DNA of 42,299 nucleotides, taken from an uncultured Flavobacteriaceae bacterium (lineage in GTDB: Bacteria; Bacteroidota; Bacteroidia; Flavobacteriales; Flavobacteriaceae). Below the pieces are notes generated by a model, which was not told the origin of the DNA, searched no databases, and was given only the letters and a program-made list of their open reading frames with translations. Positions 153 to 42,299 of the stretch are shown here, piece after piece. Numbering within the stretch: the stretch's first letter is position 1; every line of letters begins with the position of its first letter. The translations under genes and the position numbers were made by a program. The DNA is taken from contig CANMFQ010000032.1 in NCBI GenBank assembly GCA_947497145.1, positions 1-42,299 of the forward strand, given 5' to 3'.

Positions 153-164
153 AGAACACAAAAA

Positions 165-262
165 CAAAGCAATCCCCATAGTATCGGCAAAGCAGCTGGT
201 TCAGTCAACAGCGCCATCATGTTGGGTCGTGGCGACCACACGAAGGCTTAGTTATTTTGCCA
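165..262 (-). repeat. Cassette repeat A, copy A1 (minus orientation)
   Basis: Read on the minus strand, this copy follows the stop codon of the MACPF gene and runs from GGCAAAATAAC through the conserved core CCCAACATGATGGCGCTG to GATTGCTTTG. The same roughly 95-nt element recurs near 32374, 35312, 37190, 39100 (plus) and 41390 (minus), each time directly after a gene. The first bases form the R''-like half of a recombination site. The core can fold because CCAT...TCGG-type and CCGA...ATGG-type blocks face each other. Confidence 0.8.
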
Positions 263-272
263 GTAGTTTTTA

Positions 273-1598
273 TTACAATTTGATTAAGTAAATTAATTTA
301 TAATATGGGGGAATATTTTCACTCTCATTAATTGTCAATGAATGTTTATGGTCGTTCTCTGCAACACTATTTCCTCCGCCACCTCTTCTAATATTATGGT
401 TAGAATGACCCATAACAGAACTATGACTATGTTTTGTTTTGCCTCCTTCTGTACCAACCTCTTCGAGATTAGCTGTTCCCATTATAAATTTATCTGTCAA
501 ATTGGGTGTATCAAAAGTACCATCACAAACAGCCCAACCGTCGGGAATTATTGAATTCAGGTCTGTATCTCTGTTGATTGCAGAATTTGGTGACCACGCT
601 ATAATTGTACCTTTTGGAATACCAAAGGGTGACTCAATTTTATATCCTGAAAATGGTGATAATAGCGCTCTCGTTTTCGGATAATCAATTAGCGTATGCC
701 AATATGATTTGACTTTGGCAGTAATTGGTGTAACACCAACAGTTATAGAACCATCACGCATTCCATTTATGAATTCAGCTACTTGGCCGTATGTATTCAT
801 TACTGTTTGATATTCATTTGGTGTAATTTTTCCAGCAGTTACTTCGCTTACAATTTCCACTTTTCCTGAAGTTAAAATTTTTGAACTTGACGTACTAACA
901 GAACCTCCAACAGAACCAGAACCAAACGATGCTTTCATTTCAGCTCTAAATGATATTACGTCTGTTTCTTTTTTAGAATTTAGTTTAGCGTGTATTACAA
1001 TTCTTGCACCATAATTTAGACTTTGAATGTAATGAGACCCATAGTCATTCAGAAATTGAGATAATCTTTTATCATCAGTAAGAATTTGAGGGCTTTCTGA
1101 AAGAGGTTCTCTATTCCAAACAAAATTTCCGATTGATATTGAAGGTCCATATTCAACTTTTTCGATAACTACGAATATTGATTTTGAGCTTGCATCTAAG
1201 GTTTTTGCCCTATTATAGGCAGCAGACATGTTAGCTAAGCCATAACTACCTTTAAAATATAGGTTTAACATTTCAGCAAGTTGTTTTGTTGTTTGTGTTT
1301 CAATTATCCGGCTTTTAATGTTGCTGTATTCTACATTTGTTGATTTAATTTTATCTTCTTCAATTGAGACATTAGAGAGTGAAGAGGAACTAAATGCTTT
1401 CAATGACGTTCCTTCAGGGTTATATCGGTCAGCCATATTAATTCCATCTCCGAGTTTTAGATTTGAGCCAATAGTCTCGTTTATGACTATGTCATAGGAT
1501 GGTTGTGTTATATTAAATTTTCCAACAGAATTGTTAAATGATTGAGAGAAGGCTGTAACGCTAAATGTCGTAAGTAATATTAAAGGAATAGATTTCAT
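273..1598 (-). CDS. Secreted MACPF-domain protein with C-terminal phage tail-collar-like domain
   Basis: 441 residues with a Sec signal peptide (1 to about 19, ending AFSQS). Residues about 30-320 look like a membrane attack complex/perforin domain: YGSHY at 186-190 fits the MACPF signature Y-G-[ST]-H-[FY], and the glycine/serine-rich stretch after it fits the usual hairpin region. Residues about 327-441 resemble the collar/receptor-binding end of phage tail fibres and microcystin-dependent proteins: IPKGTIIAW, IPDGWAVCDG, TPNLTDKFIMG, then GGKTKHSHS and DHKHS, ending PPYYKLIYLIK. MACPF proteins form pores in target membranes; the collar part could bind a receptor or metal through its His-x-His pairs. 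It sits alone in a minus-strand cassette between repeat A1 and boundary 1692-1705. Use against other cells or predators is inference. The domain calls are firm by motif, the joint function is not. Confidence 0.8.
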   Translation of the reverse strand: MKSIPLILLTTFSVTAFSQSFNNSVGKFNITQPSYDIVINETIGSNLKLGDGINMADRYNPEGTSLKAFSSSSLSNVSIEEDKIKSTNVEYSNIKSRIIETQTTKQLAEMLNLYFKGSYGLANMSAAYNRAKTLDASSKSIFVVIEKVEYGPSISIGNFVWNREPLSESPQILTDDKRLSQFLNDYGSHYIQSLNYGARIVIHAKLNSKKETDVISFRAEMKASFGSGSVGGSVSTSSSKILTSGKVEIVSEVTAGKITPNEYQTVMNTYGQVAEFINGMRDGSITVGVTPITAKVKSYWHTLIDYPKTRALLSPFSGYKIESPFGIPKGTIIAWSPNSAINRDTDLNSIIPDGWAVCDGTFDTPNLTDKFIMGTANLEEVGTEGGKTKHSHSSVMGHSNHNIRRGGGGNSVAENDHKHSLTINESENIPPYYKLIYLIKL

Positions 1599-2030: not shown

Positions 2031-2110
2031 GTTGCACAACAATTATATATCCATACTCAAGTACATATATTTCTTTTTTACGATTACTAAGCTAAGGGAT
2101 TTTTAATAGA
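2031..2110 (-). repeat. Cassette repeat B at the recombinase end (reference copy)
   Basis: On the minus strand this holds the last codons of the recombinase stump, its stop codon, TAGTAATCGTAAAAAAGAAA, the palindrome-like TATGTACTTGAGTATGGATA and ATTGTTGTGCAAC. Copies of the same string lie at 31324, 34626, 35464, 37340, 39249 (plus) and 42299 (minus), each just upstream of a cassette gene. This copy is the one still joined to a readable recombinase end, so it is the likely source or counterpart of the others. Confidence 0.75.
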
Positions 2111-2278
2111 TTTAAAAGTAGTTGCTGCCACATGGGTGTACATTTCTGTTGTTATGGAAGCGTTATGACTCAAAAGTACTTGAATAGTGAATACATGTAC
2201 ACCACCCTTTAGTAAATGACTAGCATAACTGTGGCGTGCTATATGCGATGCCATGCGCACACTTATTTTCATCTTAGG
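2087..2278 (-). pseudogene. Tyrosine recombinase (integron-integrase-like), C-terminal fragment
   Basis: About 61 residues remain. They hold the second catalytic box of tyrosine recombinases: HIARHSYASHLL (the H-x-x-R pair), LLSHNASITT (the third His) and EMYTHVA with the nucleophile Tyr. The tail TFKSIKNPLA resembles the end of IntI-type enzymes and their Bacteroidota relatives (YTHV...SPLD). A stop codon (TAG) lies in frame two codons before the first Met, and the N-terminal DNA-binding and first catalytic boxes are absent, so this is a remnant. Its 3' end has been copied, in decayed form, into the repeats of the array at 31-42 kb. This suggests it is, or derives from, the recombinase that moved those cassettes. 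Confidence 0.75.
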
Positions 2279-2409
2279 CTAACACGCCTTGCAAATTTAT
2301 TAGCTGTACTAGCGCAAAAACCTTCAAATAAACAAAGTGAAATAGTACGTTATGCAGTATTTTACGTTTTTTTGTTACCTTCTAAGGTATAAATTAAGGT
2401 TAAAGAGAA

Positions 2410-4718: not shown

Positions 4719-4719
4719 G

Positions 4720-31067: not shown

Positions 31068-31323
31068 GAGCTGTTTGGTTGTTACGTATTGCTTATTTAG
31101 GTTTTAAAAGTAGAGAAGTTAGTAAGAAGAGGCAAGTTCTTTGTTGAAATTAAACTTGATTTTTTTATCAATTTAGTATATTGGTTTTTTGAAGCTTCTT
31201 TGGTATGGAAGCTAAGGGTGCTACTCTAATAAGATTGATGGGTAATAGTGTACCACAAATACGCCCACTTTTTGAGTTATGATTTGGTTGAAATAATTGA
31301 AATTCAGTGCTATGTAGTGGTGA
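31068..31323. other. Junction between core genes and the cassette array
   Basis: AT-rich stretch without a gene. Promoter of the minus-strand sulfatase run should lie here. From 31324 the sequence becomes repeat B, so the array edge is near that point. Confidence 0.5.
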
Positions 31324-31414
31324 ACACTTTTAAATTGATTAAAAATGCCCTAGATTAGTAATCGTAAAAGAGAAATATAGGTGCTTGAGTGCTTATATAC
31401 GATTGTTAGCATAT
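31324..31414 (+). repeat. Cassette repeat B, copy B1
   Basis: CACTTTTAAATTGATTAAAAA, then GATTAGTAATCGTAAAAGAG, an imperfect palindrome around GTGCTTGAGTGC and the boundary GTTAGCATAT (31405-31414). It lacks the upstream part with the decayed recombinase codons seen in B3-B5. TTAGCATAT is the exact reverse complement of ATATGCTAA (32365-32373) at the far end of the gene it precedes. Confidence 0.8.
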
Positions 31415-31435
31415 ATTATAAAATACCAACCAGAA

Positions 31436-32359
31436 ATGAAATTTATCACTAAAATTTTACCCTTTGCATTTATTGGAATTTTTAGCTGTTCGGATGGACA
31501 ACTAAAAACGGACTTACAAATCGCAAAAGCTGAACTTGAAAAAACCAAGCAAGAATTGACTAATTGCTCGTCACAACTAGCGGACGTTCTAAATACTCCA
31601 GACCAAAGAATTTTGACAGCAAACAAACTATTTGTAGATGGAAATTTTTCAGGAGCTAGAAAAGAGTATGAAGAAATTAAATCAAAATTTACCGATACAG
31701 AATATGCGAAAACGGCTATAAAGCAAATTGTTGCAATGGACAAAAAAATCGAAAAACGAAGAGTCGAGGCTGAGAAACAAAGAGCAGAAGAACTAAGAAA
31801 AAAAGCACTTGGATTTAAAGTATTAAAACCATCGAGTACAGTAAAATTTGGAGACCTTACTGTAAAATTTGAAAAAGTATGGACTGGCAAAAGATGGTCG
31901 TTTGACGACTATGGTAGTAGGTATAAATTAAGGGACGCTACCCGAGGAAATAAACACGTTCTTGCAAGAATCAGAATTTCTTCCGAATCAAAAAACCCAA
32001 AACTTCCTCCAGTTCTGGCATATCAATTTTTCGACGGTAAATTAATCTTGTTAGGAACGCTCGGTTATGAATTTAGACGGTGGAAAGACTATGGTTCGTT
32101 TTTAGGGAACTATGCGGATTATGGTAATGATTTTGCTCATTCTAAAACTATTCCTTTCAACTTAGGTTACGAAACAAGTGAGGACAATTTAAAAACTGGT
32201 CGAGTATATGTAGTTATGAAAAAAACAGGCTGTTTTAATAGAGAAAATAAAGATTTTGGAAATCCCGAAGTTCAATATACTATGGGGATTTGTACTCCGA
32301 AAAGTTCATTAGAAGTTTCGGACTTTGATAATGACTATGTTCTAATCAAAACCCTGTAA
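31436..32359 (+). CDS. Cassette lipoprotein with coiled coil, unknown function
   Basis: About 307 residues from the ATG at 31436; the open frame runs back to 31385 but that part lies in the repeat. Signal with lipobox IGIFSCSDG, then a coiled coil (about 28-55, LQIAKAELEKTKQEL), a tetratricopeptide-like stretch (ANKLFVDGNFSGARKEYEE), a charged helix (KKIEKRRVEAEKQRAEELRKKA) and a beta-rich C-terminal domain (about 130-300). No family recognised. Single gene between repeats B1 and A2. Confidence 0.75.
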   Translation: MKFITKILPFAFIGIFSCSDGQLKTDLQIAKAELEKTKQELTNCSSQLADVLNTPDQRILTANKLFVDGNFSGARKEYEEIKSKFTDTEYAKTAIKQIVAMDKKIEKRRVEAEKQRAEELRKKALGFKVLKPSSTVKFGDLTVKFEKVWTGKRWSFDDYGSRYKLRDATRGNKHVLARIRISSESKNPKLPPVLAYQFFDGKLILLGTLGYEFRRWKDYGSFLGNYADYGNDFAHSKTIPFNLGYETSEDNLKTGRVYVVMKKTGCFNRENKDFGNPEVQYTMGICTPKSSLEVSDFDNDYVLIKTL

Positions 32360-32364
32360 ATAAC

Positions 32365-32470
32365 ATATGCTAATAACTGAACCTTCGCATGGCCAGCACC
32401 ACCCAACATGATGGCGCTGTTGACTAAACTGGCGGCTTTGCTGACACTATGGGGATTGCTTTGGATTTGC
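32365..32470 (+). repeat. Cassette repeat A, copy A2
   Basis: Begins with ATATGCTAATAAC, complementary to the cassette's 5' boundary, then the core ACCCAACATGATGGCGCTG and GATTGCTTTG. In this copy the outer stem reads CAGC facing GCTG where other copies have TCGG facing CCGA, so the pairing is kept while bases change. The B part that normally follows is missing and replaced by intron sequence. Confidence 0.8.
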
Positions 32471-32499
32471 CATTTATAGGATAATTGAACTAAACGGTA

Positions 32500-32710
32500 T
32501 AAGGGCTACAAAACCAGCATAAGAAAAGGGTATAAATGCCTCGCAGCTATAAGGAAACAGTTCCCATATTTGTTTTAGCACTGGCAGCTGGGTTATAAGT
32601 TCATTAGAACTTAAATCAAAAGACTGTTTAACAAGAGCCGTATGATGGGAGACTATCACGTACGGTTCTGTGAGCCATTTAGGGGTGAAATTCCGCTTTA
32701 CCTACTCGAC
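32500..32710 (+). mobile_element. Group II intron, 3' remnant (domains V and VI)
   Basis: Domain V is a 34-nt hairpin (32635-32668) with GAGCCG at the start pairing with CGGTTC at the end, the AGC triad, and a GAGA-type loop. Domain VI follows with TTTAGGGGTGAAATTCCGC and the typical end CTACTCGAC (32702-32710). Upstream to about 32500 is likely the tail of the intron reading frame, but it carries stops. The 5' part and the reverse transcriptase are missing, so it is a dead fragment. It lies right after repeat A2. Confidence 0.85.
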
Positions 32711-32739
32711 TAGTATTAGTTTTTATTCCGAAATAATTT

Positions 32740-33048
32740 CTAATATTTCCGCTTCTCCAATTTTTCTTTTCCCTCGTGAATCCACCAAACTCTTCCTTTT
32801 TCAATCATTTCCTTTATATTTTGATGTTTTAAAAATCTAACTTTTACAATTTCCGTTTCGTTCAGTAAAATCCATTCTTTTTCAAAGTCAATTTGTCCAA
32901 TATAAGTTGTTACAAATTCAGATGAATTTTCTCGATATTCAAAAACGTGATTTGGTCGATATCCAGTTTTAATTCCAGTTTTTCTTCCTCCGTTTTCAGT
33001 TGGATAAAGAGTGAGTTTTGCTTTTATTTCTATAACGTCTGAAATCAT
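32740..33048 (-). CDS. Small protein resembling EF-Tu domain III
   Basis: 102 residues. ENGGRKTGIKTGYRPNHVF strongly recalls the start of EF-Tu domain III (EEGGRHTPFF..YRPQFYF), and the end (KGRVWWIHEGKEKLEKRKY) recalls its final strand (RFAIREGGRTVGAG). No GTPase domain is present. Free-standing proteins of this kind occur in Bacteroidota with no known role; interference with, or immunity around, the elongation factor is one idea. Orientation is opposite to the plus-strand cassettes, in the segment that splits A2 from B2. Confidence 0.65.
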   Translation of the reverse strand: MISDVIEIKAKLTLYPTENGGRKTGIKTGYRPNHVFEYRENSSEFVTTYIGQIDFEKEWILLNETEIVKVRFLKHQNIKEMIEKGRVWWIHEGKEKLEKRKY

Positions 33049-33089
33049 ATTTTCAATTCTATTTTTTCTAAATCAGAATACTCCATTTC

Positions 33090-33158
33090 TTTTAGGGAAG
33101 GCTATAAAATATTCAACCAAATCATCTATTGATTCAAAATCTTTTTTAGGGAAGGCTA
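33090..33158 (+). repeat. Two direct copies of a 15-mer, third copy inverted at 34596
   Basis: TTTTAGGGAAGGCTA occurs at 33090-33104 and 33144-33158, and its reverse complement at 34596-34610, exactly where the IS3 stump begins. The outer pair encloses 33144-34610 as an inverted repeat. Origin unknown. Confidence 0.7.
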
Positions 33159-33260
33159 CAATTTAGCAAATAAAACCCGAATATGAAATCCGATAGGATT
33201 TTATAAAGTAGGCTAGAAGCAAGCAATTAACTATAGCATACCTTGTTGTGGTGTAGTTAT

Positions 33261-34070
33261 TTATTTTCCAAATAGTCTTTTTAACAATCCTTTTTTAGGT
33301 TTCTCTTCAAGTTCAGGATCGACTAATAAACTACCTGAAAGCCAAAATTGTCCGTGAACAACTCCACCGACTTTGGGTACGGTATTTTCAAAGAATCTAA
33401 GGTCAGCTAGTACATCAATCTCACCACCAAGAGTGTCAACGAGCATCCAATAGAATTCCTGATCAGTAAATTCATTATTCCTTTTTTTGGTTTGCTTGAT
33501 AATGCCAGCAAATAGCCCCAAAGCTTCTGGTGAGTTTGGGTCATCTCCTTCTCCCGGATTAAATAATCCACTTGGGACGAATGATTGAGACGCCCATTTT
33601 GGTTCTCCTTCCTGTCCATTAGCAAAAGCATCTTCAGATTCGTAATAGTCAAATTCTTGAGCAAATGCAGAAAGCTGAATTTCGATTACTTGGGGTGTTT
33701 TTATTCCTAAGTACATTTTGTGATTTGGAACATCAAAAACAAAGGGGTAAGCTCCACTTTCAGGATTCTCAAGCTCCATTGGGTCCGCCCAAGCATGAAA
33801 GGCTCCATCTAAAACGCTCTCAGGCCTGTCAATGGTTGCTGTTATAGAAACCTTCCGCTTACTTTCACCTTTGAAGTGCGGATTTGCTCCAATTAATTCA
33901 TTCTTTTTATTCATTTGAATCCAAAGTTCCGCTCCTGATTTATCAGAAAATTGAAAGTATGTTCCCTTATTTGTTTTCAATGGAATTGACTTTTCGTAAG
34001 CTCTTTCGACTAATGAATAAAAGTCTTCCTCACTTTGAATATCAAAACCTATGTCTGATAGATTACCCAT
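33261..34070 (-). CDS. Conserved-looking cytoplasmic protein of unknown function
   Basis: 269 residues without signal peptide or membrane helix. The protein is acidic with many aromatic residues and ends in a basic amphipathic tail, KKGLLKRLFGK. I see a beta-rich middle (VSITATIDRPESVLDGAFHAW, YPFVFDVPNHKMYLGI) and a helical region (NNEFTDQEFYWMLVDTL). No family assigned. It lies between the 15-mer repeats and the IS3 stump, minus strand, and may have arrived with them. No partner gene is evident. Confidence 0.65.
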   Translation of the reverse strand: MGNLSDIGFDIQSEEDFYSLVERAYEKSIPLKTNKGTYFQFSDKSGAELWIQMNKKNELIGANPHFKGESKRKVSITATIDRPESVLDGAFHAWADPMELENPESGAYPFVFDVPNHKMYLGIKTPQVIEIQLSAFAQEFDYYESEDAFANGQEGEPKWASQSFVPSGLFNPGEGDDPNSPEALGLFAGIIKQTKKRNNEFTDQEFYWMLVDTLGGEIDVLADLRFFENTVPKVGGVVHGQFWLSGSLLVDPELEEKPKKGLLKRLFGK

Positions 34071-34121
34071 ATTGTTTTTTTAGTGTCTTGTCCTGAAATA
34101 TGGTTTCAGGTTCAAATTGAT

Positions 34122-34600
34122 TTACGCTGATAATTTATATACCATATTTGGTGTTTTATAGTCTAAAGATAAATGTAATCTAATTTGGTTATATAAATTA
34201 ATTGCATTTTTTGTTGCTCTTTTTGCGTGTTGCAGACTATCAAAGGTCTGGTCGAGATAGAACTCACCTTTTGATATTCCGTTTATTCGTTCAGCCATTG
34301 CATTTTCGTAGTAATGATTATCTTCTGTCATACTAATGGTGATGTTGTTCCGCTTTAAAATTTGAGTGTAAACATTGCTACAATATTGTATTCCTCTGTC
34401 CGAATGATGTATAATATCTTTAGCTAGATATAGCGCTTTATTTAAGGCTCTTTCACAGCCTTTAAGTTCTAGGCTTTTACTGATGTCATACCCAACTATT
34501 TTACGGCTGTACATATCTGTAATGAGTGCTAGGTAACAAAATCCTTTTATAGTTCTGATGTAAGTGATGTCGCTTACCCAGACTTGATTGGGTTGTAGCC
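34122..34600 (-). pseudogene. IS3-family transposase (OrfB), C-terminal fragment
   Basis: The frame opens at the inverted 15-mer and reads QPNQVWVSDITYIRTIKGF, then TDMYSRKIVGYD, HHSDRGIQYCS and ENAMAERINGISKGEF. The three acidic DDE residues are in these blocks (VSD, HSD, AER). The first ATG is only at 34514. The N-terminal half of OrfB and all of OrfA are missing, so it is inactive. Confidence 0.85.
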
Positions 34601-34625
34601 TTCCCTAAAAATGAACAGTTGATTT

Positions 34626-34770
34626 ATACACTACTCAAGTGCTTTTGAACCATTATTTTTTTCAAAACAACTGAAATGTATACCCATGTAGCAACAACTA
34701 CTTTTAAATCCCTTAGATTAGTAATGGTAAAAAAGAAATATATACTTGATTTGTAGTATATAATAAAGAG
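34626..34770 (+). repeat. Cassette repeat B, copy B2
   Basis: Begins CACTACTCAAGTGCTTTTGA, continues with decayed recombinase codons (ACTGAAATGTATACCCATGT, reading TEMYTHV), then TTAGATTAGTAATGGTAAAA and a variant palindrome ATATACTTGATTTGTAGTATAT. The boundary box GTTGGCA is missing; the gene ATG follows directly. A2 and B2 look like the two halves of one repeat separated by about 2.2 kb of foreign DNA. Confidence 0.8.
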
Positions 34771-34773
34771 CAT

Positions 34774-35304
34774 ATGAAATTGAATAAAACGTTATTACTT
34801 ATTGCTATAGGTTTTTTAATAATCAATCTATTCTTTTTTAAAAACTCTGAAACACTGAATGGAGGAAGAGCAATGATTTACATAATCATTTTTCCTTTAT
34901 TCTGGGTTACGACGCTAATTATTGTTGGAATATTAGCATATAGAAATCGTAAAGAATGGTTCAATAAAGAAATGAAAATTTCGACTATCGTTTTTTTGAT
35001 TTTATGTACACCTTTATCTATTTGGGGATTTTCTGCTTTAACAAGACCTGAAATACAATTAAGTGGAACTGGTTATAATCCGAGAAATGGAATTACGATA
35101 AAAACCGAAACGTGGAATTATAGCTCTGGACAAACAGCAGTTACAAAGTTTTGGAAACTTGACACTGAAAACTGGACGAGTTCTGATGAGAATCAATTTA
35201 AAAAAGATTCTATTTGGGTTTATTATGACAAAACAGGAGACACTTTAAAAATTGAGAAATATAAGAATGATCAATTTGTTGAAAAAATAGAAATGAAGAA
35301 ATAA
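34774..35304 (+). CDS. Cassette membrane protein, unknown function
   Basis: 176 residues with three membrane helices (about 7-23, 33-55, 68-88) and a soluble C-terminal half rich in Thr, Trp and Lys (TKFWKLDTENWTSSD) that should lie outside the cytoplasm if the N-terminus is inside. No family recognised. Single cassette gene between repeats B2 and A3. Confidence 0.75.
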   Translation: MKLNKTLLLIAIGFLIINLFFFKNSETLNGGRAMIYIIIFPLFWVTTLIIVGILAYRNRKEWFNKEMKISTIVFLILCTPLSIWGFSALTRPEIQLSGTGYNPRNGITIKTETWNYSSGQTAVTKFWKLDTENWTSSDENQFKKDSIWVYYDKTGDTLKIEKYKNDQFVEKIEMKK

Positions 35305-35311
35305 CGTGCGA

Positions 35312-35430
35312 CAATAACTACCCCTCCATGCGGTCAGTACGACCCAACATGATGGCGCTGTTGACTAAACCGGCTGCTTTGCCCATACTATGGAGATTGC
35401 TTTGGGTTTGTAGTGCTTTTAGAGGGATTA
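35312..35430 (+). repeat. Cassette repeat A, copy A3
   Basis: Starts AATAACTACCCCTCCATGCGG, then the core with GACCCAACATGATGGCGCTG and GATTGCTTTGGGTTTGTAG, and ends at AGAGGGATTA. Directly follows the stop codon of the membrane protein gene. Reverse-strand frames through it (for example HSIGKAAGLVNSA) are shared by all copies and are not genes. Confidence 0.85.
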
Positions 35431-35463
35431 AATAGGGAGTAGGTATTGTTCTTGAATAGATTT

Positions 35464-35625
35464 TATGCACTATTAAAGTGCTTTTGAACCATTGCTTTTT
35501 CAATACAACTGAAATGTATACTCATGTTGCAACAAGTACTTTTAAATCGTTTAAAAATTCTTTAAATTAGTAATGGTAAAAAAGAAATATACGTACTTGA
35601 GTACGTATATACAGTTGTTGGCAAC
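35464..35625 (+). repeat. Cassette repeat B, copy B3
   Basis: Decayed recombinase end (TGCACTATTAAAGTGCTTTTGA; ACTGAAATGTATACTCATGT), then TTAAATTAGTAATGGTAAAA, a near-perfect palindrome TACGTAC-TTGA-GTACGTA at 35588-35609 and the boundary CAGTTGTTGGCAAC (35612-35625). The open frame starting at 35573 reads from inside this repeat and is not the gene start. Confidence 0.85.
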
Positions 35626-35641
35626 AAGCTTGAAAAAAACT

Positions 35642-36241
35642 ATGAACTTCGATTTAGAAGATAAACTTAACGAATATGTAAAACGCAATGATTTGGATTC
35701 TGCAATACAAATTGCGGAATCGGAATTGAGCAAGATTCCTCATACGGAATTTCATCAGCTGATTGGAATGAATCTTCTGCATATGGAATCGGAGTTAAGT
35801 GATTTTATTTCAAAATTCTATTCAAGCGTAAAACTGAAATACACTTTTAGTTTTACAAAAAAGCTGAAAGCCTTTTACTGCGAAATGAACGGATTCACTA
35901 TAAACTATGACAGATGGTTTATAGACTTGTTTTCGTTTAACGAAATCGGAAAAGAAGATTATCAATGGTTAGCGGATTTTCAGTATCATACGAATAAGAA
36001 CTTGACCATAACCGGATTTGAAAACCTTCAAAGAGTTTACGAAGACGTTTATAAAAACCAAAAACACAACATTCCCGAAATTGAACAAGCTTATGACGTA
36101 GCGGAATTATTAATCATTTTACGTTTGCAAGAACTTTTTAGGAAAACGTACAAAAACGCTAAAGAAAGTGGGAAAAAATGGAGTGATTATCCAATGTTTG
36201 TAACAGCACACGATTATGAAATGATTTATAGAATAAATTGA
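35642..36241 (+). CDS. Cassette protein of unknown function, all-helical
   Basis: 199 residues from the ATG at 35642. Upstream in-frame codons lie in the repeat. Predicted as mostly helical and acidic, without signal peptide (NFDLEDKLNEYVKRNDLDSA, LQRVYEDVYKNQKHN, AELLIILRLQELFRKTYKNA). It is aromatic-rich (RWFIDLFSF, YQWLADFQYH). Not recognised; size and style resemble immunity-type or DUF proteins common in cassettes. Boundary GTTGTTGGC at its start matches GTTGTTAGC (reverse of 36259-36267) after it. Confidence 0.7.
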   Translation: MNFDLEDKLNEYVKRNDLDSAIQIAESELSKIPHTEFHQLIGMNLLHMESELSDFISKFYSSVKLKYTFSFTKKLKAFYCEMNGFTINYDRWFIDLFSFNEIGKEDYQWLADFQYHTNKNLTITGFENLQRVYEDVYKNQKHNIPEIEQAYDVAELLIILRLQELFRKTYKNAKESGKKWSDYPMFVTAHDYEMIYRIN

Positions 36242-36250
36242 ATTGAACAA

Positions 36251-36396
36251 AAGCCAGCAGCTAACAACGTATCCTATAAAAAATAGCAGTTTTGGTAATT
36301 AAACGAAAATGAATTTTATAAATTTAGAGTCATTTATAATATGAAAAGTTAGTGCTAAAAATCTGATACGTTTTATATACAATACTGTTGGCAATA
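36251..36396 (+). repeat. Short attC-like recombination site 1
   Basis: AGCTAACAAC opens it and GTTGGCAA (36387-36394) closes it. Inside, AACGTATC (36265-36272) pairs with GATACGTT (36365-36372), and TAGCA (36283-36287) with TGCTA (36352-36356). This imperfect palindrome with R and L arms and a long central loop is the shape of integron attC sites. It is unlike the A/B repeats and stands between two cassette genes. Confidence 0.65.
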
Positions 36397-36412
36397 AGCT
36401 TGAAAAAAGACA

Positions 36413-37198
36413 ATGAAGTATTTTAATCTTTTCGAGAAAACCAAAGGACAGAGCTCAAATCCAGAATCTGAAAAATCGGAATTTGAGAAAATCAAGGTTT
36501 TTAAAAGCTTACCAAAAGAGCAATGGAAACCAGCTTATAACGAACTGAATAAAATAATAGGTGCAAACCTCAAAGAATACGGGTTTAAAAAGAAAGGCAG
36601 AAAACATTACCGACTGACAAATGACTTGTTAGAAATTATAGACATTGATAATCGTGGGAGCTGGTCGGGAGCGAAAGACGATATAGAAGTCCGAATTGGA
36701 TTAGTTCCATACTGTTGGGAGGGACTTACGAATGAATACTATTTGATTGGTTCAAAAAAAATCGAGGAAATAGATAAGACAATCAGAAAGCACTTTAGAA
36801 TTTCAGAAGAGTATTTAATATTAGCCGATTATCTTTCAGAAAGATTAATTGCAAATGCTTTGCCATTTTTTGAAAAATACAATTCGACCAAAAAGATAAC
36901 GAGTAAGCCATATATTTTTCCATTTTCTTCCAAGTGTGGAGGAAGTGACATTTACAAATCTCAATTTCTAATTTTATTTTCAGAACTCAAGCAGCATAAA
37001 GTGAATAAAGCTATCGAGATTTTGGAAAACGAAATAGAGTTTCACGAACGATTCGAAAATTTAGAAATAGTAAATAAATGGAAAGAACTGAGAGAATTAA
37101 TTGAAAGAAAAGAATGGACTGAAATTGACAAAATTTTAGCCGCAAACGAACAGAGAGAATTAAACAAACTGAAAATAAAGCCAGTTGCCAATAACTAA
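36413..37198 (+). CDS. Cassette protein with DUF4304-like domain
   Basis: 261 residues. The middle part (about 35-190) resembles DUF4304: LKEYGFKKKGRKHYRLTNDL, then IDIDNRGSWSGAKDDIEVRIGL. A helical C-terminal part (about 195-250) follows. No signal peptide. The last codons KPVANN and the stop codon are made by the recombination site itself (GTTGCCAATAACTAA). DUF4304 has no known activity. Boundary GTTGGCAA before the gene pairs with TTGCCAAT after it. Confidence 0.75.
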   Translation: MKYFNLFEKTKGQSSNPESEKSEFEKIKVFKSLPKEQWKPAYNELNKIIGANLKEYGFKKKGRKHYRLTNDLLEIIDIDNRGSWSGAKDDIEVRIGLVPYCWEGLTNEYYLIGSKKIEEIDKTIRKHFRISEEYLILADYLSERLIANALPFFEKYNSTKKITSKPYIFPFSSKCGGSDIYKSQFLILFSELKQHKVNKAIEILENEIEFHERFENLEIVNKWKELRELIERKEWTEIDKILAANEQRELNKLKIKPVANN

Positions 37199-37310
37199 GC
37201 TTCCATGCGGTCGGTTCGACCCAACATGATGGCTGTGTTGACTGAATCGGCTGCTTTGCCGATACTATGGAAATTGCGATGCGTTTATGGTGTTTTAGAG
37301 GGATTATAGC
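37184..37310 (+). repeat. Cassette repeat A, copy A4
   Basis: Begins TTGCCAATAACTAAGC, overlapping the end of the DUF4304 gene, then GCGGTCGGTTCGACCCAACA, ATGGCTGTGTTGACTG and GATACTATGG. Diverges a little in the core (GGCTGTG for GGCGCTG). Confidence 0.85.
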
Positions 37311-37339
37311 GGGTAGATATTGTTGCTAAATAGTTGATT

Positions 37340-37490
37340 AATGCACTATTAAAGTGCTTTTGAACCATTACTTTTTCAGTACAACTGAAATATACACCCA
37401 TGTATCAACAAATACTTTTAAATCCCTTAGATTAGTAATCCTAAAAAAGAAATATACGTACTTGAGTACGTATATACAGTTGTTGGCAAA
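37340..37490 (+). repeat. Cassette repeat B, copy B4
   Basis: Decayed recombinase end, TTAGATTAGTAATCCTAAAA, the palindrome TACGTAC-TTGA-GTACGTA (37453-37474) and the boundary CAGTTGTTGGCAAA. Its last 60 bases are nearly the same as in B3. Confidence 0.85.
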
Positions 37491-37513
37491 CATTAAAAAA
37501 ACACAATTTTAAC

Positions 37514-39085
37514 ATGAAAAGAATCGCATTACTACTTTTGTTATTAATCACTTTTAATAACTATGCACAAGATGTTTCAATCAAAAAAAGTGAAATTTTT
37601 AAAGATTCTAAAAAGAATAGTTCCTTAGAGTATTCTTTGGAAGATGAAAATGGAGGTCTTATCACAATTAGAGCTTTCTATGGAGGAATGCTACAAAAAC
37701 TTAAAGGGTATTATATTCAACATTTTGATTCTAATTTAAAGCTATTAAAAGAGGTCGAATACAAGGTTGATAAAAACGAGCTAAAAAATGCTTTTATTAA
37801 AGACAATAAACTACATTTAATTGAATATAATATAGATAAAAAAGTAAATAAAATTTCATTCAATGCAGTATCTGCAAACTTAAAAGACCTAAACTTTAGT
37901 TCTAAAGAAATATTATCGCTTTCTGAAGACGAGCAACAAAGATATTTTGGCGTCATGATATTTCCGATGCTAATTAGTAATTTTTATCAATATGACAACA
38001 GCCATGCAGGAGAAGTTGTAATGTCTAGAAATAACAGTTATTTTGTTATAAATTTTGACATTAATAATAAAGATAAGGAAACTCATAAAATTTTTGTTTT
38101 TAACAATAATTTTGAAAAAGTTTATGAAAAATTAATTCAAAAAAATATAAAAGACAAATATTTTGATTACCAAAATATTGATATCGATGATAATGATGGT
38201 ACTGTTTACTTCTTAGGTAAATCTTTTGAAAATGAGTCTAGAAAATCAAGGATAAAAGGAGAAGTTAATTATCACTTCGAATTATATAAAGTTAATGCGA
38301 ATGGTCAAACAAATATTAGTTTCAAAAATACTGATAAATTTATTTCTTCATTACAATTGATTAAATCTGATAACCAAGTAGTATGTGTTGGATTTTACGG
38401 AAAAAGAGATGAAAATAAAATAAATGGAGTAAGCTTTTTTAATTTAAATCCAGAAACTTTAAAAATGGAATCAGAAAAATTTACACCTTTTTCAGAACAG
38501 TTTTTAACTGACAAATACGGAAACAATGAAAACATAAAAAAAAGAAAACAGAAAAAAGGAATAAAAAATATTGATTTTAAAAGTGTTTTCATGCTGGATA
38601 ATGGTGATGTAATTGTTAATGCAGAAGAATTTTACATTTCTACTCACACAACTAACTCAGCTACTGGAGGTATGAGAACCAGCACCATTTATCACTTTGA
38701 CGATATTATGAGTTTAAAATTGGATAAAGAAGGAAATATAAAATGGGCTAGAAATATTAATAAAAGACAAACAGGATTCGCAAATAGTTCTTATACTTCG
38801 TTACCAATTGGCGGAGATTCTTATTTCTTTATAAATTGTTCTGATAGAATCAAAAAATTAAGTGCGGACAGAATTTCCTTTAACCAAACTAAAGCAAAAA
38901 AATCAAACCTCTACTTGATTAAAATAAATAAAAATGGTGAGTTTGACTTTAAAAAAATAATTGATGACAAAGAGTCTAAAGTATATTATAAAGTAAATAA
39001 TGGAAATGTAAATCTTGATAATCAAACTGTTATTCTAATAGGAAAGAGAAAGGAAAAATCAAGAGTTTTAAAGATGAAAATTTAA
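37514..39085 (+). CDS. Cassette-borne secreted protein, unknown function
   Basis: 523 residues with a signal peptide (MKRIALLLLLLITFNNYAQ). The mature part is rich in Lys, Asn and short beta strands with recurring blocks such as IFVFNNNFEKVYEK, YFLGKSFEN and SLKLDKEGNIKWARN, which suggest a beta-propeller-like repeat fold. No catalytic motif is seen. It is the largest gene in the array and clearly more AT-rich than the core genes. Boundary GTTGGCAAA before and TTTACCAAT after are complementary at 7 of 8 places. Confidence 0.7.
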   Translation: MKRIALLLLLLITFNNYAQDVSIKKSEIFKDSKKNSSLEYSLEDENGGLITIRAFYGGMLQKLKGYYIQHFDSNLKLLKEVEYKVDKNELKNAFIKDNKLHLIEYNIDKKVNKISFNAVSANLKDLNFSSKEILSLSEDEQQRYFGVMIFPMLISNFYQYDNSHAGEVVMSRNNSYFVINFDINNKDKETHKIFVFNNNFEKVYEKLIQKNIKDKYFDYQNIDIDDNDGTVYFLGKSFENESRKSRIKGEVNYHFELYKVNANGQTNISFKNTDKFISSLQLIKSDNQVVCVGFYGKRDENKINGVSFFNLNPETLKMESEKFTPFSEQFLTDKYGNNENIKKRKQKKGIKNIDFKSVFMLDNGDVIVNAEEFYISTHTTNSATGGMRTSTIYHFDDIMSLKLDKEGNIKWARNINKRQTGFANSSYTSLPIGGDSYFFINCSDRIKKLSADRISFNQTKAKKSNLYLIKINKNGEFDFKKIIDDKESKVYYKVNNGNVNLDNQTVILIGKRKEKSRVLKMKI

Positions 39086-39093
39086 AAAAACGA

Positions 39094-39215
39094 TTTACCA
39101 ATTACTACCCCTCCATGCGGTCGGTACTACCCAACATGATGGCGCTGTTGACTGAACCGGCTGCTTTGCCGATACTATGGAGATTGCTTTGCGTTTATGG
39201 TCTTTTTAGAGGGAT
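39094..39215 (+). repeat. Cassette repeat A, copy A5
   Basis: Starts TTTACCAATTACTACCCC; CCAT (39113-39116) and TCGG (39121-39124) face CCGA (39169-39172) and ATGG (39177-39180) across the core. Ends in TTTTTAGAGGGATTA. Confidence 0.85.
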
Positions 39216-39248
39216 TAAATAGGGGGTAGGTATTGTTCTTTAATAGGT

Positions 39249-39402
39249 TGTATGCACTACTCAAGTGCTTTTGAACCATTATTTTTTTCAAAACAACTGA
39301 AATGTATACCCATGTAGCAACAAATACTTTTAAATCCATTAGATTAGAAATTGTAAAAGAGAAATACACGTACTTGAGTATGTATATACAATTGTTAAGT
39401 GC
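39249..39402 (+). repeat. Cassette repeat B, copy B5
   Basis: TGCACTACTCAAGTGCTTTTGA, decayed codons reading TEMYTHVATNTFKS, TTAGATTAGAAATTGTAAAA, palindrome region ACGTACTTGAGTATGTATA and the boundary ATTGTTAAGTG. The boundary box differs from the usual GTTGGCA, and so does its partner after the gene. Confidence 0.85.
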
Positions 39403-39420
39403 AATTAAAACTGAAATAAA

Positions 39421-40608
39421 ATGAAACTAAAAAATTATTTTAAAATTCTTATCCTTTCTCTAATAACAATAATTTATTCTTGTGAGAACGACAATGACGC
39501 TATAGAGTTAAGTTCTGAGAATAGAATTCTATCATTTGAATTATCTAAAAACTCTTATTCTAAAGCGTTCAATATATCTGAAAATTCAGTGGATGGAACA
39601 GTTGATAGCAATATTGAATTGACAGGTATTAACTTAAATATAGCAATATCAGAAAAAGCATCCATAACTCCTAGCCCTAGTTCTATTACAGCAATAACGG
39701 GTCCTTTTACCTTTACAGTTATTGCTGAAAATGGAGATGAGAGAATTTATAATGTTTCAATAAATAGAGAACTAAGTGCTGAGAACTCAATATTAGATTT
39801 TCGTATTAACGATAATAACTTTTCAACTTTTGCTACTATAAATAATGACAATAATACAATTACGCAAAGATTACCCCAAACAGTTAGTTTATCTAATTTG
39901 GATGTATCTATAACCTTTTCAGAGAGAGCAACAATAACTCCTTCTATAGATAACCTTATAGACTTTTCTGAACCAGTTTCGTTAACAGTAACATCAGAAT
40001 CTGGAATTGAAAGAACGTATATTGTTAACATAGCCCATATGGATGAAATTTTTAGTAAAACTTGTAGTGAAATGAATGCTTGGAAATGGTTTGGTGGGGA
40101 TAATAGAACAACTGCACCAGATATTGACCCTTATGACAGGAATATGGGGACTGGACAAACTATAATTTTAGATAATGATCTAAATCCTTCTAATTTCAGT
40201 ATTCATCTCAGAGAAGGTTTTAGATTTGATGAAGACGACAGTCCTTATAATCAGGATGTTGAATTGAAATTAAATATAAGGAACTCGGAAGGAAATATTA
40301 TAGCAGATACTACGACAACTGTATTTGGTAATTTTAATGGGGGATTTATCACTTTTGATTTGGCAAATAAAAATTTGTTTTTAGAAAGCAATACTGTATA
40401 TATTTTTCAATGGTATTTAGTGAATGGTGCAACCTTAGGTATAACGGCAGGAAGTTCAGGAAATACAGATGAGGAATCAACCGGATTTTGCTTTAATGGA
40501 GGTTATAATGGACAATCCAATTTAAGAGATAATACTAATCTAGAAGATATTAACGTTTGGGGGCAACATCCTTGGAATTTTAATATAGTGCTAGAAGGTA
40601 ATGAATAA
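39421..40608 (+). CDS. Cassette lipoprotein with two DUF5018-like repeats
   Basis: 395 residues; lipobox IIYSCEN. Two repeats of about 85 residues (about 30-118 and 119-206) share the pattern ILSFEL...TGINLNIAISEKASITPS...FTVIAENGDERIYNVSI and ILDFRI...LSNLDVSITFSERATITPS...LTVTSESGIERTYIVNI. These resemble the DUF5018 beta-sandwich of Bacteroidota surface lipoproteins. A C-terminal domain (about 215-395) has NAWKWFGGDNRTTAPDIDP and many Asn/Gly. Probably displayed at the cell surface. GTTAAGTG before and CACATAAC after are complementary at 7 of 8 places. Confidence 0.75.
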   Translation: MKLKNYFKILILSLITIIYSCENDNDAIELSSENRILSFELSKNSYSKAFNISENSVDGTVDSNIELTGINLNIAISEKASITPSPSSITAITGPFTFTVIAENGDERIYNVSINRELSAENSILDFRINDNNFSTFATINNDNNTITQRLPQTVSLSNLDVSITFSERATITPSIDNLIDFSEPVSLTVTSESGIERTYIVNIAHMDEIFSKTCSEMNAWKWFGGDNRTTAPDIDPYDRNMGTGQTIILDNDLNPSNFSIHLREGFRFDEDDSPYNQDVELKLNIRNSEGNIIADTTTTVFGNFNGGFITFDLANKNLFLESNTVYIFQWYLVNGATLGITAGSSGNTDEESTGFCFNGGYNGQSNLRDNTNLEDINVWGQHPWNFNIVLEGNE

Positions 40609-40610
40609 AA

Positions 40611-40746
40611 ACACATAACACGGTATAAACTTAATAAGGGCTAAAATATAAACCAAAACTGATTTTGTACTTACAAAAGTAGTTATTAAACCGAAATTTA
40701 TTGCTTACAAATCCCTTGTTAAGTTTATCGCAACCATTGTAGCACA
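40611..40746 (+). repeat. Short attC-like recombination site 2
   Basis: ACACATAACAC opens and TTGTAGCACA closes the site. Inside, TATAAACTTAATAAGGG (40624-40640) pairs with CCCTTGTTAAGTTTATC (40713-40729), 14 or more of 17 places, leaving a loop of about 70 bases. Arms with few mismatches and a large loop fit an attC-type hairpin. Confidence 0.7.
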
Positions 40747-40763
40747 TTTAATAAAATCTTATC

Positions 40764-41213
40764 AAGCGGCCCTTTTTTGGTCCATCGCAGGTGGTGGAGT
40801 ATTTAGGTAGGTATACCCACAAGATAGCTATCAGCAATCATCGCCTTAAAGATGTATCTGATGGGCATGTTACCTTTAGCGCCAAAGACTATCGCAAGGG
40901 TGGTAAAAAACAGACCTTAGGTTTAACTCATAAGGAGTTCATTCGTAGGTTTGCCCTTCATATTTTGCCTAAAGGGTTTGTTCGCATACGCCACTATGGT
41001 ATTTTAAGTAGTTGTAAAAAAAAGGTGCTTGTTCCCTTATTGCATAAAGAACTAGGCAAGCCTATTGTAAAAGAACCCCCGCCATTAAAGCACCGTAAGT
41101 GCCCGTATTGTAAGCTTGGGAGTATGGTTACCGTTACTATATTTGATAGTCGTGGTCCGCCCAAAATATGGTTAAAACGATTAAAAAACAATGCCCCAAA
41201 CACAACGCCTTAA
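40764..41213 (+). pseudogene. IS91-family transposase, C-terminal fragment
   Basis: The frame opens at about 40755 and the similarity begins with KRPFFGPSQVVEYLGRYTHK, then IAISNHRL, VTFSAKDYRKGGKKQTLGLT, EFIRRFALHILPKGFVRIRHYG and a C-terminal cysteine pair RKCPYCKLG. YLGRY has the Y-x-x-x-Y spacing of the paired tyrosines of IS91-type (Y2, HUH) transposases. The N-terminal zinc region and the HUH motif are missing, so it is inactive. It sits where the next cassette gene should start, right after attC-like site 2. Confidence 0.88.
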
Positions 41214-41387
41214 AAAGCGTACAGGCATACCTATGCTCAAAAATTAAAAAAAGGACAAAAAAGAGCTGCTTAACGAAACAAATTGCCACAATGGCGACCT
41301 AAAATAAGAAGAAACCCTAAGCTAGTAGGGATTATTTAGCCCGAAAAGAAGCTGCTACACTAGCACTCTCTGTAATAAAACACCATA
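41214..41387. other. Spacer between the IS91 fragment and repeat A6
   Basis: No gene seen. A small hairpin CCCT-AAGCTAGT-AGGG lies near 41316-41331. The orientation of the array reverses across this stretch: cassettes are plus to its left and minus to its right. Confidence 0.5.
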
Positions 41388-41490
41388 AACCCAAAGCAAT
41401 CTCCATAGTATCGGCAAAGCAGCCGGTTCAGTCAACAGCGCCATCATGTTGGGTCGTACCGACCACACGAAGGCTTAGTTATTATTGCCA
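41388..41490 (-). repeat. Cassette repeat A, copy A6 (minus orientation)
   Basis: On the minus strand it follows the lipoprotein gene: TTATTGCC..., ACGACCCAACATGATGGCGC, CCGGCTGCTTTGCCGATACT, GATTGCTTTGGGTTTATGGT. Nearly the same as A5 and A3, but inverted relative to them. Confidence 0.85.
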
Positions 41491-42209
41491 GTAGTTTTTT
41501 TGTTTATATAAATTCCGTTCAAATTACTCAATTCAGATATTTTTATTATGTCTGTTGGATGAAAATAAGTAGTTACTCTTCTTATTCTTGGTAAATTGAT
41601 TTCTGTACTATCCTCTGAATGCTTGTATGTTCCATTCATTGAAAGTGCTAAATCCTCAAAAATAAATTTAGTAATTGTGTCATTTTTGTTTTCAATTTGT
41701 AAATCTCCCAAATTCACAGTCATTGCAGTTTTGTAGGGTTTATGCTTTTTTACTTGAATGTTCGTGAAAATCATTTTTTCGTTCTCTATTTTCAATCCGT
41801 CAAAATATAGTTCTCTTAAATTTCCGCCAGAATTTCCATTATAGTTCAGAACTTTCAAAGTCAAATCGTATGCTTTCTCATAAGTTATTCTTGCGATTGT
41901 ATCTTTTGGTCTGTGTCCTAATTCCAATCTTGTAACTTCGAGTGTGTCTTTTGATAACCATTTGATTAAATGACCATTAATTCTAATTCCACGATTTTCT
42001 TTAAATTCTGTTCCTGCTTTTTGAATTTGTAATCCACAAATATCACTACTAAATGCCATCATTCCTGTCCGACAATATTTATAGATTTCGTATTTACCAT
42101 CTAATGACTTTTGCGATATAAATTCATAATACTCATAGTCAGTTTGTTTCGTGTCCGAAAGACAAGAGTTTAAAATAATGGCTAAAAAAATGACTAAAGT
42201 TTGTTTCAT
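41475..42209 (-). CDS. Cassette lipoprotein, unknown function
   Basis: 244 residues; lipobox LAIILNSCLSD. Beta-rich mature part (YEIYKYCRTGMMAFSSDICG, IRINGHLIKWLSKDTLEVTR, MTVNLGDLQIENKNDTIT) without recognised motif. The final codons TTGNNN and the stop codon are supplied by the A6 repeat. AAATTACTGGCAA (42213-42225) before the gene and TTGCCAGTAGTTT (41485-41497) after it are complementary at 12 of 13 places. Single minus-strand cassette at the right edge. Confidence 0.75.
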   Translation of the reverse strand: MKQTLVIFLAIILNSCLSDTKQTDYEYYEFISQKSLDGKYEIYKYCRTGMMAFSSDICGLQIQKAGTEFKENRGIRINGHLIKWLSKDTLEVTRLELGHRPKDTIARITYEKAYDLTLKVLNYNGNSGGNLRELYFDGLKIENEKMIFTNIQVKKHKPYKTAMTVNLGDLQIENKNDTITKFIFEDLALSMNGTYKHSEDSTEINLPRIRRVTTYFHPTDIIKISELSNLNGIYINKKTTGNNN

Positions 42210-42228
42210 TTCAAATTACTGGCAACGT

Positions 42229-42299
42229 ATGTATAATGAACATATGTTCATTATATACTATATGTTTATTACAAATCTAAAGGATTTTTAATAGAACTA
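42229..42299 (-). repeat. Cassette repeat B, copy B6 (minus orientation, cut by the window edge)
   Basis: On the minus strand it reads TATTAAAAATCCTTTAGATT, TGTAATAAACATATAG, then a different perfect palindrome AATGAACATATGTTCATT (42234-42251 region) and CATACGTTGCCAG. The order is the same as in other B copies, but the palindrome sequence is new while its symmetry is kept. Confidence 0.7.

What the first reader, a model, noticed from the sequence alone, without database searches (positions are those of the whole stretch)
31324..42299. Integron-like cassette array with long composite sites in a flavobacterium
Single, mostly unrecognised genes are separated by a repeat made of two parts: A directly after a gene and B directly before the next. 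At least six A and six B copies plus a reference B copy are seen. The genes differ completely while the flanks are conserved, which is the mark of a cassette system. The sites (about 280-310 bases where A and B are joined) are far longer than known attC sites, and their boundary box (GTTGGCA, GTTAGCA, GTTGCCA) does not fit GTTRRRY strictly. This may be a poorly described cassette family.
Basis: partly seen in the sequence, partly recalled or inferred. Interest (0 to 1): 0.92.

Follow-up and report, generated by a model that had tools for sequence, protein, structure and literature searches.

The report
Integrons run by a non-IntI recombinase
Marine bacteria related to Flavobacterium carry arrays of swappable single-gene cassettes that behave like integrons but are probably run by a different kind of recombinase, and the same cassette signature is found on antibiotic resistance genes.

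Summary
The array is real and reaches beyond the window: 93 A and 69 B hits in 31 of 32 home-genome stretches. It works like an integron. A cassette begins GTT-N7 and ends with the reverse complement N7'-AA; in the home genome this pairing holds within cassettes, not within joined A-B sites. B is a decayed 3' end, plus attachment site, of a tyrosine recombinase ('intB'), intact in relatives. Beside intB in named relatives, 34 of 50 first cassettes match perfectly and 13 at 9/10; permuted keys gave 1.25% and 17%. In 12 of 12 similar pairs, similarity stops 3-18 nt after the site's GTT begins. One cassette sits beside three integrases 41-47% alike. intB forms a clade apart from IntI and lacks the IntI insert. 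Ordinary sites are about 130 or 192 nt; the window's long sites look like fossils, an IS91-like end (A) plus an attachment-site copy (B). aadS, tet(X) and lnu(I) on a Riemerella plasmid fit the rule; tet(X3) in Acinetobacter follows a cut relative of the integrase. Recombination itself is inferred.

The parts
159..256 (-). A copy at the left end of the window
   Evidence: nhmmer E 2e-31
273..1598 (-). single-gene cassette of the left array (441 aa)
   Evidence: ORF, bounded by A and B; its two ends do not pair
2037..2189 (-). B copy: attachment site plus decayed 3' end of the intB gene
   Evidence: nhmmer E 9e-36; frame reads HSYASHLL..TTEMYTHVAATTFKSIKNPLA
2123..2296 (-). tyrosine recombinase fragment (C-terminal catalytic part, one stop)
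   Evidence: PF00589 E 7.8e-8
31270..31407 (+). B copy; GTT-N7 cassette start at 31405
31436..32359 (+). cassette gene, no Pfam match (307 aa from this ATG)
   Evidence: start GTTAGCATAT pairs perfectly with the A end at 32372
32372..32469 (+). A copy
32633..32710 (+). group II intron 3' end downstream of the A copy
   Evidence: Rfam RF00029, 55 bits
34122..34514 (-). transposase fragment (rve integrase core) inside the array
   Evidence: Pfam
34629..34760 (+). B copy, degenerate end
34774..35304 (+). cassette gene (176 aa), no Pfam match
35313..35620 (+). composite A-B site (A 35313-35410, B 35466-35620)
35642..36241 (+). cassette gene (199 aa from this ATG), no Pfam match
36258..36389 (+). 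possible ordinary attC-like site without A or B; next start GTTGGCAATA at 36387
   Evidence: sequence; weak fold, z -0.6
36413..37198 (+). cassette gene (261 aa), DUF4304
37190..37485 (+). composite A-B site (A 37190-37287, B 37342-37485)
   Evidence: single-strand fold joins A start to B end
37514..39085 (+). cassette gene (523 aa), no Pfam match
39100..39397 (+). composite A-B site (A 39100-39197, B 39253-39397)
39421..40608 (+). cassette gene (395 aa), DUF5018
40608..40740 (+). attC-like hairpin site without A or B
   Evidence: fold z -3.5, 1 of 200 shuffles as good
40791..41213 (+). 3' fragment of an IS91-like Y2 transposase, followed by an inverted A copy
   Evidence: PF04986 E 1.2e-26
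41386..41483 (-). A copy
   Evidence: nhmmer E 7e-33
41475..42209 (-). cassette gene (244 aa), no Pfam match, array of opposite orientation

Best explanation
An integron-like gene-cassette system of Bacteroidota. A tyrosine recombinase (intB, about 375 aa, nearest to archaeal Xer proteins and IntI4 among solved structures) lies directly upstream of its attachment site, a hairpin ending in GTT. Cassettes are mostly single genes that begin GTT-N7-ATT and end AAAAAC-N7'-AACA followed by an imperfect palindrome up to the next GTT. In an excised circle N7' and N7 come together and pair, so the folded single strand presents a recombination site, and intB joins it to attI or to another such site at the GTT. 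Shown by sequence: the arrays, the pairing rule, attI, clean replacement at GTT, and cassette sharing. Inferred: circles, single-strand folding in vivo, and catalysis by intB. The home genome holds many scattered arrays and no complete intB in the assembly. Its A-B sites are most likely cassette ends invaded by an IS91-like element (A is its right end) and joined to copies of attI with the 3' end of intB (B).
For: Pairing within a cassette but not within a site: mean 3.88 of 7 (32 of 37 parsed cassettes) against 2.35 (20 of 25 sites) and 2.28 for random, 0 of 20000 permutations (the rows left out had no GTT at the B end). 16 of 76 A ends have a perfect 10-nt partner upstream against 0.4% of 453 controls. 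Named relatives: 34/50 perfect and 13/50 at 9/10 for the first cassette, controls 1.25% and 17% of 960. 215 cassettes chained in 52 loci, 198 of 215 with the longest ORF in array orientation. attI aligned in 11 relatives. Similarity stops at GTT+3 to +18 in 12/12 pairs, for example two Tenacibaculum finnmarkense strains 96.3% alike up to the site. The same lincosamide-transferase cassette lies beside three integrases 41-47% alike, 98.8% over 1088 nt in one pair. The expected catalytic residues R235 K260 H324 R327 H350 Y359 are invariant in 25 intB.
Against: No recombination was observed here. The pairing test takes the best match in a window, so a single 9/10 match is weak. In the home genome most A ends find no perfect partner (60 of 76) and A-B sites fold poorly (z < -2 in 6 of 25 as written, 8 of 25 on the other strand). 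The circle-form folds of relatives are biased because the ends were selected as complementary; the array form is z < -2 in 47 of 60 sampled of 163. Ten loci with more distant homologues of the integrase in family f5 showed no cassette rule (0 of 10), so the integrase type alone does not define the system. That A is the IS91-like end rests on adjacency in four genomes, in one of them with A recognised by eye.
Confidence: 0.88

Rival explanations
1. The A-B units are short non-autonomous transposable elements (MITE-like) of an IS91-like element, scattered between ordinary genes; the genes are not cassettes.
For: A adjoins the 3' end of a Y2 transposase in the home genome, L127, L126 and L174; A and B are dispersed genome-wide; A is followed by several different sequences.
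Against: The two ends of a joined A-B unit do not pair with each other beyond chance, while the two ends of a gene do. Cassette starts that are not preceded by B follow the same rule. Named relatives show clean cassette replacement although none of the 80 has an A hit at E 1e-5.
Confidence: 0.07
2. This is an ordinary integron with a diverged IntI that existing models miss.
For: TIGR02249 scores 206-211 bits for five intact intB proteins; IntI4 (2a3v) is among the nearest solved structures.
Against: All five stay under the 265-bit cut-off. The segment that carries the IntI insert is 64 residues in 30 of 30 intB, 106 in 12 of 12 IntI, and 70-72 in the home XerC and XerD. intB and IntI are separate clades, each 100/99. 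The box is GTT-R-[TGC], not GTTRRRY.
Confidence: 0.15
3. Cassettes are moved by host XerC/XerD or by the IS91-associated recombinase, and intB is a bystander.
For: Some homologous integrases have no cassette array (0 of 10); the home genome's intB copies are broken or cut by contig ends.
Against: A GTT-N7 site lies 35-130 nt after the intB gene in 69 of 80 loci, and a perfectly paired first cassette also follows seven second-tier integrases.
Confidence: 0.06

Closest known systems
Integrons (IntI, attI, attC)
   Same: single-gene cassettes in one orientation, attI beside a tyrosine recombinase, palindromic cassette sites, cassette start complementary to its own end, insertion at a GTT (classical features recalled)
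   Different: integrase lacks the IntI insert and forms another clade; box GTT-R-[TGC]-N5 rather than GTTRRRY; complementarity tested here spans 10 nt
CALIN elements (clusters of attC lacking integrase; PMC8618304, passage)
   Same: home-genome arrays have no complete integrase in the assembly
   Different: sites are of the new type and many are composites
Archaeal integrons (PMC9668308, passages)
   Same: attI immediately downstream of the integrase gene
   Different: archaeal integrases are reported to have the IntI-specific domain; intB does not
Homology-independent uptake of aph(3')-IVb, lnu(H) and blaRATA in Riemerella anatipestifer (PMC13148043, section 11 read)
   Same: paper reports 27 bp 5' and 140 bp 3' flanks carried with aph(3')-IVb, an attC-like fold, mechanism unknown; the predicted aph cassette start here lies 29 nt before the ATG
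   Different: section 11 names no integrase, attI or pairing rule; 'integrase' and 'recombinase' do not occur in the text
IS91/ISCR rolling-circle elements
   Same: A lies at the 3' end of an IS91-family Y2 transposase
   Different: in many copies only A remains, placed directly after the N7' of a cassette end
Group II introns linked to integrons (PMC7923331, abstract start in a listing)
   Same: a group II intron 3' end lies beside an A copy in the window
   Different: class not determined here

Membership tests
Integron (IntI type) | tyrosine recombinase with the IntI-specific additional domain | tested here: not met
   64 residues in the segment (30 intB) against 106 (12 IntI); alignment to IntI4 skips chain residues 182-241
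Integron (IntI type) | integrase over the curated TIGR02249 cut-off | tested here: not met
   206-211 bits for five intact intB against 265
Integron (IntI type) | attI beside the integrase gene | tested here: met
   69 of 80 loci; alignment of 11
Integron (IntI type) | array of single-gene cassettes in one orientation | tested here: met
   longest ORF in array orientation in 198 of 215
Integron (IntI type) | attC as imperfect palindrome with complementary R boxes | tested here: met
   relatives: array form z < -2 in 47 of 60; home A-B sites only 6 of 25
Integron (IntI type) | GTTRRRY / RYYYAAC core sites | tested here: not met
   fifth base T, G or C and never A in 215 starts
Integron (IntI type) | cassette gain and loss at the core site | tested here: met
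   12 of 12 pairs; shared cassette
Integron (IntI type) | recombination through folded single strand, catalysed by the integrase | not testable with these tools
   needs bench work
IS91 family (for A) | Y2 (HUH) transposase | tested here: met
   PF04986 in the window; NF033538 418 bits in L127
IS91 family (for A) | A is the element's own right end | tested here: inconclusive
   adjacency in four genomes, transposase identity 56-68%; no complete element with both ends seen
Group IIC-attC intron | class C ribozyme inserted in attC | not tested
   only a match to Rfam's group II model

The most novel reading that the evidence does not exclude
Bacteroidota evolved a second class of integron from a Xer-like recombinase, independently of IntI. 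It is present in about one sixth of sampled Flavobacteriaceae species as intB proper and more widely through related integrases, and it is the platform on which tet(X), aadS, lnu(H)/lnu(I) and related resistance genes became mobile cassettes before IS elements carried some of them into Proteobacteria.
Probability: 0.6. Interest if true: 0.96.

Novelty: new variant of a known kind. Interest (0 to 1): 0.92.

Why it matters
IntI with its extra domain is described as essential for integron function (PMC8138268, passage). IntegronFinder 2.0 reports a complete integron in one Bacteroidetes genome, Salinibacter ruber M1, where the earlier study had only In0 (PMC9024848, passage). Here intB proper occurs in 49 of 298 sampled Flavobacteriaceae genomes (my count, one with a stop). 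A separate integrase clade running the same cassette logic would give a natural comparison for what integron recombination needs. It offers an explanation for homology-free uptake of resistance genes in Riemerella that its authors left open (PMC13148043), and for the 'xerD' noted beside tet(X) (PMC7473080, PMC8635130, PMC7494873, passages; in one strain it points the opposite way). Composite sites holding an integrase 3' end, an IS91-like end and an intron end are also a fossil record bearing on how cassette sites arise and spread.

Tried and rejected
MITE reading of A-B: dropped after the pairing test. Rfam at gathering thresholds: only the group II intron. XerD (L055) and XerC (L073) were set aside as array integrases; models name them so, XerD just over and XerC under its cut-off. 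NF040815 does not separate the types: it scores 218-233 on five intB and 219 on XerD. Intact intB in the home genome: none complete; fragments at C32 and C18 (one stop), a broken second-tier copy at C27, and an open 172-aa N-terminal half running off the end of C22, so an intact copy split by assembly is not excluded. Second-tier integrases: the rule held perfectly in 6 of 7 with at least 1.3 kb downstream, the seventh at 9/10, and in one more f1 genome, but in 0 of 10 loci of family f5, so a claim for all homologues was dropped. An early statement of mine that intB proper is confined to one family was dropped: an order-wide sample has it in families f2 and f7 too. Window cassette genes had no homologue among loci L112-L251. 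In one search, 11 of 80 loci gave no attI match; in eight of them the locus ends within 130 nt of the match. Paper searches listed no description of this system; of the papers cited I read one section (PMC13148043) and otherwise passages or listings.
Full report
Observation. Six A and six B copies lie in the window, alternating with single genes. Profile searches of the window and 31 further stretches of the same genome, chosen because earlier searches hit them, gave 93 A and 69 B hits at E 1e-3 or better, in 31 of the 32 stretches, mostly in the order gene-A-B-gene and in one orientation within an array. Some hits are partial. The earlier searches scored only part of the candidates (for example 40 of 139), so the counts are lower bounds. 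Several copies lie at contig ends, as expected of repeats that break assemblies. Twenty-five joined sites measured 220-313 bases.

What B is. Read in frame, B encodes the C-terminus of a tyrosine recombinase with stops. In relatives (98 genomes searched including the home one, 17 with a match) the same DNA is the 3' end of a gene of about 375 codons, intact in nine loci and cut in two, plus the downstream attachment region. I call the protein intB. Its nearest solved relatives are archaeal Xer proteins and integron IntI4 (AlphaFold model from 25 sequences, mean pLDDT 81, pTM 0.50). Six expected catalytic residues are invariant in 25 sequences. Five intact copies score 218-233 bits with NF040815 ('site-specific tyrosine recombinase/integron integrase', cut-off 220, which XerD also nearly reaches) and 206-211 with TIGR02249 (cut-off 265).

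The pairing rule. In classical integrons a cassette's start is complementary to its own end, because the two meet in the excised circle (recalled knowledge of attC sites). I tested this here. For 76 A ends with enough upstream DNA, the 10-nt partner (GTT plus the reverse complement of the 7 nt before A) was found perfectly upstream in 16, against 0.4% of 453 permuted keys; at 9/10 the count was 13 against 8.4%. On parsed cassettes, ends of the same gene matched at 3.88 of 7 positions (32 of 37), ends of the same joined A-B site at 2.35 (20 of 25), random pairs at 2.28; no permutation of 20000 reached the first value. The rows left out had no GTT at the B end. So the mobile unit is the gene with its flanks, not the A-B repeat.

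Relatives with intB. A site GTT-N7 lies 35-130 nt after the gene in 69 of 80. Of 50 with over 1.3 kb beyond it, 34 had a perfect partner further on, in the printed cases typically in an AAAAAC context, 13 had 9/10, two 8/10 and one 7/10; permuted keys gave 1.25% and 17% (960 trials). Chaining the rule gave 215 cassettes in 52 loci and 163 sites bounded on both sides, median 130 nt, quartiles 128 and 191, range 64-327. The consensus is ..AAC-CGTT-R-[TGC]-..-ATT at the start and AAAAAC-N7'-AACA..GTATAA at the end. The pattern used to find starts fixed GTT, [AG] and a later A, and the end search fixed AA, so those positions are not evidence; the absence of A at the fifth position and the A after AAC are.

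Gain and loss. Among the 69 loci with a site, 12 pairs at 85% identity or more had over 40 nt left on both sides. In all 12 similarity ended 3-18 nt after the start of the site's GTT, in six at +3 or +4 (three pairs share members). Two Tenacibaculum finnmarkense strains are 96.3% alike for 8.5 kb up to the site and unlike afterwards. A 256-aa gene matching Lnu(H) (NF040958, 452 bits, under its exception cut-off 540) forms the first cassette beside three integrases that are 41-47% identical, in two families (two genomes of one genus and one of the window's family); one pair of cassettes is 98.8% identical over 1088 nt.

How far it extends. In a sample of 298 Flavobacteriaceae genomes, 49 (my count of rows at 465 bits or more; one has a stop) carry intB proper, with a clear gap to the next score, 385 (six candidates scored a genome). 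In a phylum sample of 296, three did, all of the window's family; in an order sample of 246, seven had 488 bits or more, three of them in families f2 and f7. In a phylum sample 84 of 296 held a classical IntI over the cut-off, none of them in the window's order. More distant integrases also run cassettes in some groups (6 of 7 perfect and one 9/10; one more) but not in ten loci of family f5.

Not IntI. In a tree of 48 proteins intB (24) and IntI (12) are each single clades at 100/99. The program warned of long branches, so the deeper order is unsure. The stretch that carries the IntI-specific insert is 64 residues in 30 of 30 intB, 64-69 in seven second-tier proteins, 106 in 12 of 12 IntI, and 70-72 in the home XerC and XerD. 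Archaeal integrases are reported to keep that insert (PMC9668308, passage); [quoted passage not shown]

What A is, and why the window's sites are long. A starts directly after the variable bases at cassette ends and is followed by several different sequences: B, an IS91-like transposase 3' end, a stretch that in the window leads to a group II intron 3' end, and others. A adjoins an IS91-like transposase also in G003 (L127) and G001 (L126), and by eye in Gillisia limnaea (L174), at 56-68% protein identity. The best inference is that A is the right end of an IS91-like element that inserts at cassette ends, and that A-B sites are decayed copies joined to an attachment site. This is less secure than the cassette rule. 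The A-B sites fold weakly (6 of 25 at z < -2, 8 of 25 on the other strand), so many may be worn out; the site at 40608-40740 folds well.

Resistance genes. On the Riemerella anatipestifer plasmid NZ_CP073240, four genes in the first 21 kb have perfect paired ends on one strand (aadS, tet(X) twice, lnu(I)) against a shuffled mean of 0.15. Testing 16 genes one by one, 9 reach 9/10 against 10 of 240 cross pairs, some of which may arise from the two like tet(X) copies; one of the nine, ereD, has its partner far from the gene and may be chance. An Empedobacter plasmid gave three such pairs, one of them lnu(H), against shuffled means of 0.45 and 0.55 a strand. On an Acinetobacter plasmid (NZ_CP094542) tet(X3) begins at a GTT-N7 right after a hairpin and an integrase fragment 67.7% identical to a second-tier integrase; the partner at its end was not found there. 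A tet(X) stretch matches 291 plasmid records, and parts of integrases like L231 occur in 67, 50 of them Acinetobacter, none covering 80% of the query. A 2026 paper found aph(3')-IVb entering a Riemerella genome without homology, with 27 bp before and 140 bp after the gene and an attC-like fold, and called the mechanism unresolved (PMC13148043, section 11). The predicted start here is 29 nt before the ATG of the APH(3') gene on the plasmid. No tyrosine recombinase is listed in that plasmid's table, which is known to be incomplete, so which enzyme acts there is open.

Mechanism in steps. (1) A cassette circle or single strand carries N7' and N7 side by side: inferred. (2) The strand folds, pairing N7' with N7 and the flanking arms: supported by sequence and folding, biased in circle form. 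(3) intB cuts at GTT and joins to attI or another cassette site: inferred from attI position and junctions. (4) New cassettes enter next to intB: supported by the position of divergence in 12 of 12 pairs.

Prior art. Ten paper searches of an open-licence library listed no account of such a system; subscription papers and preprints were not searched, so it may be described elsewhere.

Noticed in passing
L249 (NZ_CP073240) 1089-1990, 4228-5426, 9974-10897, 12953-14151: aadS, two tet(X) copies and lnu(I) have perfect cassette ends of this system; estT, an APH(3') gene, a phosphotransferase gene and a relE-HTH pair reach 9 of 10.
   Followed up: partly
L251 (NZ_CP094542) 3236-4010: tet(X3) begins at a GTT-N7 directly after a hairpin and a cut integrase of the second tier.
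   Followed up: partly
window 32633-32710 and A copies in L064, L065, L068, L069, L070 and others: Many A copies share the same downstream sequence that in the window leads to a group II intron 3' end; three A copies stop at position 49 and run into GTGTGTGCCC, like an intron 5' end (motif recalled).
   Followed up: no
G000:C22:69960-70475: An open N-terminal half of intB (172 aa) runs off the contig end of the home genome; an intact integrase may be hidden by assembly.
   Followed up: partly
family f5 loci L253-L262: Homologues of the integrase without the cassette rule downstream; what they do is unknown.
   Followed up: partly
L187, L189, L192, L198, L201, L210 after the intB gene: Attachment region with two tandem hairpins instead of one.
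   Followed up: no
phylum sample: Classical IntI over the cut-off in 84 of 296 genomes of the phylum.
   Followed up: no
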